NCBI GenBank assembly: GCA_014859655.1
Contig: JACUTT010000016.1
Coordinates: 1 to 43,622 of the forward strand
Length of the DNA stretch: 43,622 nt
Source: Campylobacterales bacterium
Lineage (GTDB): Bacteria; Campylobacterota; Campylobacteria; Campylobacterales; Sulfurimonadaceae
Reading direction: 5' to 3'
The notes beneath the pieces are model-generated. The model was given only the letters and a program-made list of their open reading frames with translations, had not been told where the DNA came from and made no database searches. Position 1 is the first letter of the stretch; every line of letters begins with the position of its first letter. The position numbers were made by a program, and so were the translations under genes. Positions 29,199 to 29,760 of the stretch are shown piece by piece.

Positions 29199-29208
29199 CT
29201 TTCTTTAC

Positions 29209-29380
29209 AATAGAGTTCCTGCAGAACACTATTAACACGCAAAATGAGCAAAACAAGGGTAGCGTTCGCAAAGCGATGTTTCTTTAGTAAAGCCCATCTT
29301 TGCTGCGCTGGCCGCTTGGGCACTAAAGCTAGTCTCTTGCGAGCCAGAGGACTAATTGCAGTTTTGCAAGAACTCTATTA
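29209..29380. repeat. Inverted-repeat element 1 (MITE-like, about 172 bp)
   Basis: Arms at 29209-29227 and 29362-29380 are complementary at 17 of 19 positions (left arm AATAGAGTTCCTGCAGAAC). Inside, CTTTAGT...GCCCA pairs with TGGGC...ACTAAAG (about 29282-29327), and GCGTTCGCAAAGCG forms a small hairpin. There is no transposase frame and no clear target duplication. It is probably a non-autonomous mobile element or a remnant of one. Confidence 0.55.
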
Positions 29381-29427
29381 TCTTTATTCTGATCCCCAAG
29401 CGGTGCAAGAAGTTTTAAAGAAGTCTT

Positions 29428-29720
29428 CAGGGCACCTCTAGAAACCCTGCACACGCTCAGCGTTAAGAGCGCTTTGCTATTGCGAGGCAGATGTACGCAG
29501 GAGCTACAAGTAGCTTGCGCGTAGCCTGCCCTTGGGGTGCAAGTATATCTAACGAAGCAAGAGTGAAGCTCTCTTAACGCCCTGCGGGAGGCACAAAGAA
29601 GCACAATCTTTCCTCCTTTTTCCTCTCACCTTAGCTACGGCTAGGGTTTCGAGAAAAAAAGAGAAAATCTTCCGCTTCTTTGTGCCTCTGAGAGTGTTCA
29701 GGGTTTATAGAGGTGCCCTT
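29428..29720. repeat. Inverted-repeat element 2 with three-way-junction fold (about 293 bp)
   Basis: Terminal arms 29428-29460 and 29688-29720 pair at 29 of 33 positions. Within, arms 29461-29474 and 29566-29579 pair at 13 of 14, and 29588-29602 pairs perfectly over 15 bases with 29674-29688. Nearly all of the element is therefore accounted for by one closing stem and two branches. No protein frame is convincing. It ends 40 bases before the AMIN gene. It is either a MITE-like element or a structured RNA. Confidence 0.65.
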
Positions 29721-29760
29721 AAGTACAATGTTGCCAACTGACAGTATAGATAGGTAGATT

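What the first reader, a model, noticed from the sequence alone, without database searches (positions are those of the whole stretch)
29428..29720. A 293-bp element that folds almost completely into a three-way junction
The terminal arms pair over 33 bases (29 matches). Directly inside, a second pair of arms (13 of 14) begins at the next base, and a third pair (15 of 15) closes against the end of the outer stem. This leaves only about 8 bases unpaired at the junction. Such a complete nested design is more than a simple MITE needs and suggests either a mobile element moving as structured DNA or a structured RNA. No transposase is in the window and I do not recognise the family.
Basis: partly seen in the sequence, partly recalled or inferred. 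Interest (0 to 1): 0.65.

Follow-up and report, generated by a model that had tools for sequence, protein, structure and literature searches.

The report
Mobile folded element with exchangeable ends
This is one copy of a small gene-less jumping DNA element, found across the order Campylobacterales, whose middle folds into a four-armed shape that evolution has preserved while the ends used for jumping were swapped, which suggests the folded part has a job of its own.

Summary
The fold is real: MFE -150.6 kcal/mol, z -11. It is a fully paired four-way junction; the "8 unpaired bases" form a small hairpin, CCCnnnGGG. The element is mobile: about 266 bp, TIR GGGCACCTCTAAAAACCC, and exactly 4-bp target duplications in 52 of 100 relatives (9 expected). 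IS5-family elements (DUF772 + DDE_Tnp_1) share these TIRs, but only the outer 16-38 bp; the interior is not IS-derived. In 38 diverse copies, 77 of 94 pairs show two-sided compensatory changes. A covariance model of the core hits 124 of 399 genomes of the order, in 35 genera. In several families the same core carries different, near-perfect TIRs, several kinds within one genome. The element is two inverted copies of one module. G-U wobbles are favoured on the + strand of one arm and the - strand of the other, as expected if each arm is selected as RNA read from outside inwards. No Rfam family and no precedent was found. Verdict: a MITE-like non-autonomous transposon with a conserved structured core and exchangeable ends; what the core does is inferred, not shown.

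The parts
29430..29718 (+). Whole mobile element, 289 bp (266 bp in most relatives; this copy has about 23 extra bases in the apex of the second arm)
   Evidence: boundaries from the 4-bp target duplications of relatives; alignment A1
29426..29429 (.). Left target-site position, TTCA
   Evidence: sequence; identical 4-bp repeats at this position in 52 of 100 relatives, not in this copy
29719..29722 (.). Right target-site position, TTAA
   Evidence: sequence; differs from the left flank by one base, so this copy looks old
29430..29459 (+). P1 5' strand; the outer 18 nt, GGGCACCTCTAGAAACCC, are the left terminal inverted repeat
29689..29718 (-). P1 3' strand; right terminal inverted repeat, read GGGCACCTCTATAAACCC on the - strand
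29460..29580 (+). Arm P2: basal stem, conserved internal loop, middle stem and apical hairpin (sense copy of the module)
   Evidence: covariance model R1, built without this copy, matches 29456-29592 + at E 4.8e-14
29484..29488 (+). GAGGC, 5' side of the conserved internal loop (consensus AAGGC)
   Evidence: nearly invariant columns
29551..29554 (+). AACG, 3' side of the conserved internal loop
   Evidence: invariant
29580..29588 (+).
29588..29688 (-). Arm P4: second large hairpin, the antisense (inverted) copy of the module
   Evidence: model R1 matches 29576-29692 on the - strand at E 1.6e-12

Best explanation
It is a non-autonomous transposon (MITE-like) of a family spread through the order Campylobacterales. 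Shown: it inserts with terminal inverted repeats and 4-bp target duplications. Shown: its TIR is the TIR of IS5-family insertion sequences. Inferred: it is cut and pasted in trans by their DDE transposases. Shown: its interior is not IS sequence but two inverted copies of one structured module (P2 on +, P4 on -) around a tiny hairpin, together forming a paired four-way junction. Shown: the fold is kept by compensatory change over many genera, and the same core is found with many other TIRs. Inferred: copies that keep the fold are the ones that propagate, and the core can be moved onto the ends recognised by whichever transposase is present. Inferred from strand-specific G-U tolerance: each arm is selected as RNA when read from outside inwards, so a read-through transcript entering from either side meets a sense copy first. 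My best guess at the benefit is a cis effect on read-through transcripts (folding, stabilisation or protection from termination) that makes insertion beside genes tolerable in either orientation. That last step is not shown.
For: Mobility: 52/100 copies with perfect 4-bp duplications, none longer, against 9 in shuffles; modal length 266 bp. Complete genome G368 has nine near-identical copies, eight with perfect 4-bp duplications as I read them in the printed flanks. TIR shared with IS5-family IS encoding DUF772 + DDE_Tnp_1, three of them flanked by TTAA on both sides, only over the outer 16-38 bp. Fold: 94 pairs, 93.5% of cells paired, 673 double-changed cells against 185 in shuffles and at most 172 in slid structures. 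Range: 124/399 genomes of the order at E<=1e-4, 35 of 88 genera. Exchanged ends: many distinct near-perfect TIRs on the same core, several in genome G434; core motif AGGC..AACG..CCCnnnGGG in 24/32 such copies, 0/6400 shuffles. Inverted duplication. Strand bias: G-U-making changes 64 v 20 in P2 (p 1.6e-6, both C>T and A>G in excess), 43 v 82 in P4 (p 6e-4), 63 v 60 in P1; same direction in two separate data sets. Copies >=97% identical differ by one-sided changes only (19 v 0), so compensation is stepwise. Orientation to neighbouring genes is even (23 v 20) and 76/86 copies are intergenic.
Against: No transcript data. The own genome and several complete genomes with many copies have no DDE_Tnp_1 gene by HMM search; the own genome has only a decayed IS5-type fragment, so the helper is absent or lost there. 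Helpers for the other TIRs were not identified. P4 lacks the AAGGC/AACG loop of P2, so the two copies cannot act identically. G-T is also better tolerated than A-C in single-stranded DNA. The changes were counted by parsimony on trees of repeats that may recombine, so p values are approximate, and the P4 bias in the second data set alone is weak (22 v 33).
Confidence: 0.55

Rival explanations
1. Ordinary IS5-type MITE: the arms are a fold-back with no function, and pairing is kept by DNA template switching or palindrome correction rather than selection.
For: TIRs and target duplications are those of an IS5-family MITE. One copy (G000:C69, L227) appears to have the inside of P4 inverted, the kind of change template switching makes. 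Correction would also explain how both ends of a new TIR come to match.
Against: Correction should give two-sided changes between near-identical copies, but copies >=97% identical show 19 one-sided and 0 two-sided changes, and two-sided changes build up only with divergence. It does not explain the invariant loop bases AAGGC/AACG, the invariant P3, the fixed length over many families or the arm-specific G-U bias.
Confidence: 0.17
2. The fold works as DNA: a cruciform or single strand is needed by the transposase or a host junction enzyme during transposition or target choice.
For: The four-way junction is fully paired like a Holliday junction; the whole element including both TIRs folds; mobility is shown; copies that spread are the paired ones.
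Against: A cruciform extrudes both strands, so no G-T versus A-C bias is expected; one folded single strand would bias both arms the same way. The observed bias is opposite in the two arms and absent in P1. IS5-type helpers with the same TIRs lack the fold.
Confidence: 0.18
3. A host non-coding RNA or cis-regulatory RNA that has secondarily been spread by transposition, kept because hosts use it.
For: RNA-like covariation and G-U bias; 27 divergent against 5 convergent insertion sites, so mostly near gene starts.
Against: Copy number and sites vary widely, copies decay (unequal flanks, truncated copies), the two orientations are equally frequent, and many relatives have none at the threshold used. 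No fixed-locus copy was identified.
Confidence: 0.08

Closest known systems
MITEs of IS5-family insertion sequences (bacterial MITEs in general)
   Same: Short, no gene, TIRs shared with IS5-family elements, 4-bp target duplications, AT-rich intergenic targets, multicopy.
   Different: Interior is unrelated to the IS, is conserved across an order with compensatory changes, and is found with many different TIRs. The 2024 review of prokaryotic MITEs (PMC10969869) says transcripts form stable stem-loops but the passages I read mention no such conservation or end exchange.
QMITE2 of Coxiella burnetii (shown in PMC10969869)
   Same: A MITE of similar size whose transcript is predicted to fold almost completely (reported dG about -113).
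   Different: Reported in one species; direct repeats of 7-9 bp and TIRs of 23-29 bp according to the review.
Repeated stem-loops of Borrelia plasmids (PMC2674063)
   Same: Repeats with compensatory changes read as conserved RNA structure.
   Different: From the abstract: plasmid intergenic repeats, some tied to protein genes; no transposon ends or target duplications described there.
REP/REPIN elements and integron attC sites (own knowledge)
   Same: Palindromic elements conserved in shape more than in sequence.
   Different: Those move through Y1 transposases (REP) or integrases acting on single strands; here there are TIRs with 4-bp target duplications.

Membership tests
MITE (non-autonomous TIR transposon) | Terminal inverted repeats | tested here: met
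   18-bp TIR, outer arms 89% complementary
MITE (non-autonomous TIR transposon) | Target-site duplication of fixed length | tested here: met
   52/100 relatives with exactly 4 bp, chance 9; the window copy itself has TTCA/TTAA
MITE (non-autonomous TIR transposon) | Short, no transposase gene, multicopy | tested here: met
   266 bp; 17 full or partial matches in the own genome; nine copies in complete genome G368
MITE (non-autonomous TIR transposon) | Autonomous partner with the same TIRs | tested here: met
   IS5-family IS in relatives; not found intact in the own genome
MITE as internal deletion derivative of its IS | Subterminal interior shared with the IS | tested here: not met
   profile of the element matches IS loci only at the outer 16-38 bp, plus one low-scoring 52-bp terminal match; core model finds nothing in them
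IS5-family autonomous insertion sequence | Encodes a DDE transposase | tested here: not met
   no transposase-like ORF in the element
IS200/IS605-type single-strand transposon | No TIRs, no target duplication | tested here: not met
   TIRs and 4-bp duplications present
Any Rfam family | Score above the curated cut-off | tested here: not met
   no hit in the window or five relative loci; permissive search gave only chance-level hits
REP/REPIN | RAYT (Y1) transposase partner | not tested
   no RAYT search was run

The most novel reading that the evidence does not exclude
A mobile structured RNA module that is inherited across an order independently of any one transposase: two inverted RNA modules that exchange terminal repeats between transposase families, so that ends are disposable and the RNA is the conserved replicator. 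This would be a bacterial counterpart, in DNA-transposon form, of SINE-like parasites that change helpers.
Probability: 0.35. Interest if true: 0.88.

Novelty: new variant of a known kind. Interest (0 to 1): 0.74.

Why it matters
Bacterial MITEs are generally treated as short-lived deletion remnants of one IS. Here a gene-less element has kept a folded core over many genera and families while its ends vary, which implies selection on the core itself. It offers hundreds of natural variants for testing whether and how an RNA fold helps a DNA transposon to spread or be tolerated. It also gives a covariance model that could annotate repeats which split assemblies in Campylobacterales.

Tried and rejected
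Three-way junction: replaced by a four-way junction because the 'unpaired' bases are an invariant hairpin. Known RNA family: no Rfam match. Phage or plasmid origin: no blastn hit in phage or plasmid records and no exact core pattern in viral contigs. Deletion derivative of the IS: rejected. An IS carrying the module: in G505 a DDE gene lies about 0.4 kb from a core hit, but it encodes a 573-aa protein outside the 266-bp unit and looks like a neighbour. Mutational C>T bias as the cause of the G-U asymmetry: rejected for P2, where A>G is in excess too. First test of arm homology with sequence profiles was only suggestive; the covariance-model test settled it. Searching the TIR letters in papers gave primer matches only. 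Target duplications for the non-main TIRs could not be assigned with confidence (CTAG and TATA seen in two copies each, others ambiguous).

Full report
WHAT IS THERE. Window 29430-29718 is a 289-bp element that folds almost completely (MFE -150.6 kcal/mol, z -11.1). The aligned family shows a fourth, tiny arm, CCCnnnGGG, so the consensus is a four-way junction with P1 (the TIR stem), P2, P3 and P4.

IT IS A MOBILE ELEMENT. The own genome holds two more full-length copies found by this query and many partial ones; its TIR occurs 112 times at up to 2 mismatches against 1 for the reversed control. Many contigs of the assembly begin or end just inside an end of this kind, and the ends I read carry the family's own subterminal sequence, as expected if young copies broke the assembly. 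From 103 full-length copies, mostly in the window's family of genomes (called f1; contigs with matching lengths carry Sulfurimonas and other Campylobacterales titles) plus one genome of another family, the modal length is 266 bp; 52 of 100 have perfect 4-bp target duplications, none has 5 or more, and 9 are expected by shuffling. In complete genome G368, nine copies are near-identical and eight have perfect 4-bp duplications by inspection of the printed flanks. The window copy (TTCA/TTAA) is older.

THE LIKELY HELPER. Elements of about 1.25-1.35 kb in relatives have the same TIRs, and three have TTAA on both sides (L191, L277, L280). They encode a 343-347 aa protein with DUF772 and DDE_Tnp_1, i.e. 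IS5-family transposases. A profile of the element matches these loci only at the outer 16-38 bp, apart from one low-scoring 52-bp terminal match, and the core model matches none of the eight loci searched, so the element is not an internally deleted IS. The own genome has only a decayed fragment and no DDE_Tnp_1 hit; several complete genomes with many copies also have none. Trans-mobilisation is therefore inferred from ends and duplications.

THE FOLD IS CONSERVED. In 38 diverse copies, 94 pairs are 93.5% paired; 77 pairs have two-sided changes; 673 double-changed cells compare with 185 in shuffles and at most 172 when partners are slid. All of P1, P2 and P4 covary; P3 is invariant. The shuffle control does not keep relatedness, but the slid control does. 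Conserved bases outside regular stems include AAGGC and AACG in P2.

STEPWISE COMPENSATION. Nearest-neighbour copies at >=97% identity differ by 19 one-sided and 0 two-sided pair changes; two-sided changes rise with divergence. This fits selection among spreading copies better than instant palindrome correction. The number of close pairs is small (10).

STRAND-SPECIFIC G-U BIAS. Using only pairs predicted on both strands, changes from a Watson-Crick pair to G-U outnumber those to A-C in P2 (64 v 20, p 1.6e-6), the reverse holds in P4 (43 v 82, p 6e-4), and P1 is even (63 v 60). Both C>T and A>G are in excess in P2, so it is not simply C deamination. The direction is the same in the window's family and in other families. 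A cruciform would give no bias and a single strand the same bias in both arms, so each arm seems to be selected as a single strand, most simply RNA, read from the outside in.

TWO INVERTED COPIES OF ONE MODULE. A covariance model of P2+P3, built without the window copy, matches the window at 29456-29592 on + (E 4.8e-14) and, overlapping P3, at 29576-29692 on - (E 1.6e-12). The same is seen in most other loci; the same hairpins on their other strands are not reported, which argues against a generic hairpin match. P4 keeps the shape and the apical sequence but not the AAGGC/AACG loop.

RANGE AND EXCHANGED ENDS. The model hits 124 of 399 genomes of the order at E<=1e-4 (35 of 88 genera), and 60 of 397 in a phylum draw at E<=1e-6, all listed hits lying in the same order. 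In other families many copies keep GGGCACCTC-type ends, but others have different, near-perfect inverted ends on the same core: for example GGCGACTCCAAGGGAATAAAC, AACCATCCTAAATCATATTAACG, GAGACCACTGCACAGTAAC, AAGCACCTAACCAAAAGTAA, ATTACTCCACCGACTAAATAC, AACTGACCTTACGCACTAA, GACTTCTTGCGAAACCATAG and CTAGTACCGTTCCCACTAAG. G434 alone has many of these. In 24 of 32 such copies the ordered motif AGGC..AACG..CCCnnnGGG is intact, against 0 of 6400 shuffles. So the core is homologous and the ends are not. Whether this is exchange or deep divergence of the ends together with their transposases is not settled; several kinds in one genome favour exchange.

SETTING. By a simple ORF-based call, 76 of 86 copies are intergenic; 23 and 20 lie in tandem gene pairs in the two orientations, 27 between divergent and 5 between convergent genes. 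The even orientation fits a symmetrical element. The excess of divergent sites may reflect longer, AT-rich intergenic regions; no background was computed.

MECHANISM. Shown: TIR/TSD mobility, shared IS5-type ends, non-IS interior, conserved fold, inverted duplication, different ends on the same core. Inferred: trans-mobilisation, RNA-level selection, and a cis effect on read-through transcripts that makes insertion tolerable. Rivals (no function plus palindrome correction; DNA-level fold; host RNA) are scored separately.

NOVELTY. No Rfam family and no paper describing such an element was found in the open-access library; subscription papers and ISfinder were not available, so absence of precedent is provisional. 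I file it as a new variant of a known kind: it meets the working definition of a MITE but not the usual origin by internal deletion.

Noticed in passing
window 29207-29381: A second, unrelated-looking inverted-repeat element (arms 29209-29227 / 29361-29379, AATAGAGTTCCTGCAGAAC / GTTTTGCAAGAACTCTATT, about 171 bp, RNA z -4.1) lies 48 bp upstream; its ends resemble the AGACTTCTTGCGAAACC ends seen on the core in G495. The core model does not match it.
   Followed up: partly
L227 (G000:C69:9231-9495): The inside of arm P4 appears inverted relative to the other copies, as if by template switching across the hairpin.
   Followed up: no
G000: C23:26306-26357, C72:65111-65162, C82:7170-7221, C41:7625-7679, C54:38292-38347: Pairs of the same TIR only about 52-56 bp apart, i.e. 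mini-elements that look like P1 without the arms; 161- and 197-bp forms (L026, L015) also occur.
   Followed up: no
L192 (G043:C31): A GGGAACCTCTAAAAACCC end repeats seven times at exact 800-bp spacing, a tandem array or an assembly artefact.
   Followed up: no
Genome-contig hits (Spirochaeta LUC14_002_19_P3, Ruminococcus, Tannerellaceae, Clostridia): The same 18-bp TIR is frequent in unrelated phyla without the 266-bp core in the loci extracted, pointing to a widespread IS group and other MITEs.
   Followed up: partly
complete genomes G039, G249, G014, G265, G368: Many copies of the core but no DDE_Tnp_1 transposase detected, so the helper is absent, lost or of another type.
   Followed up: partly
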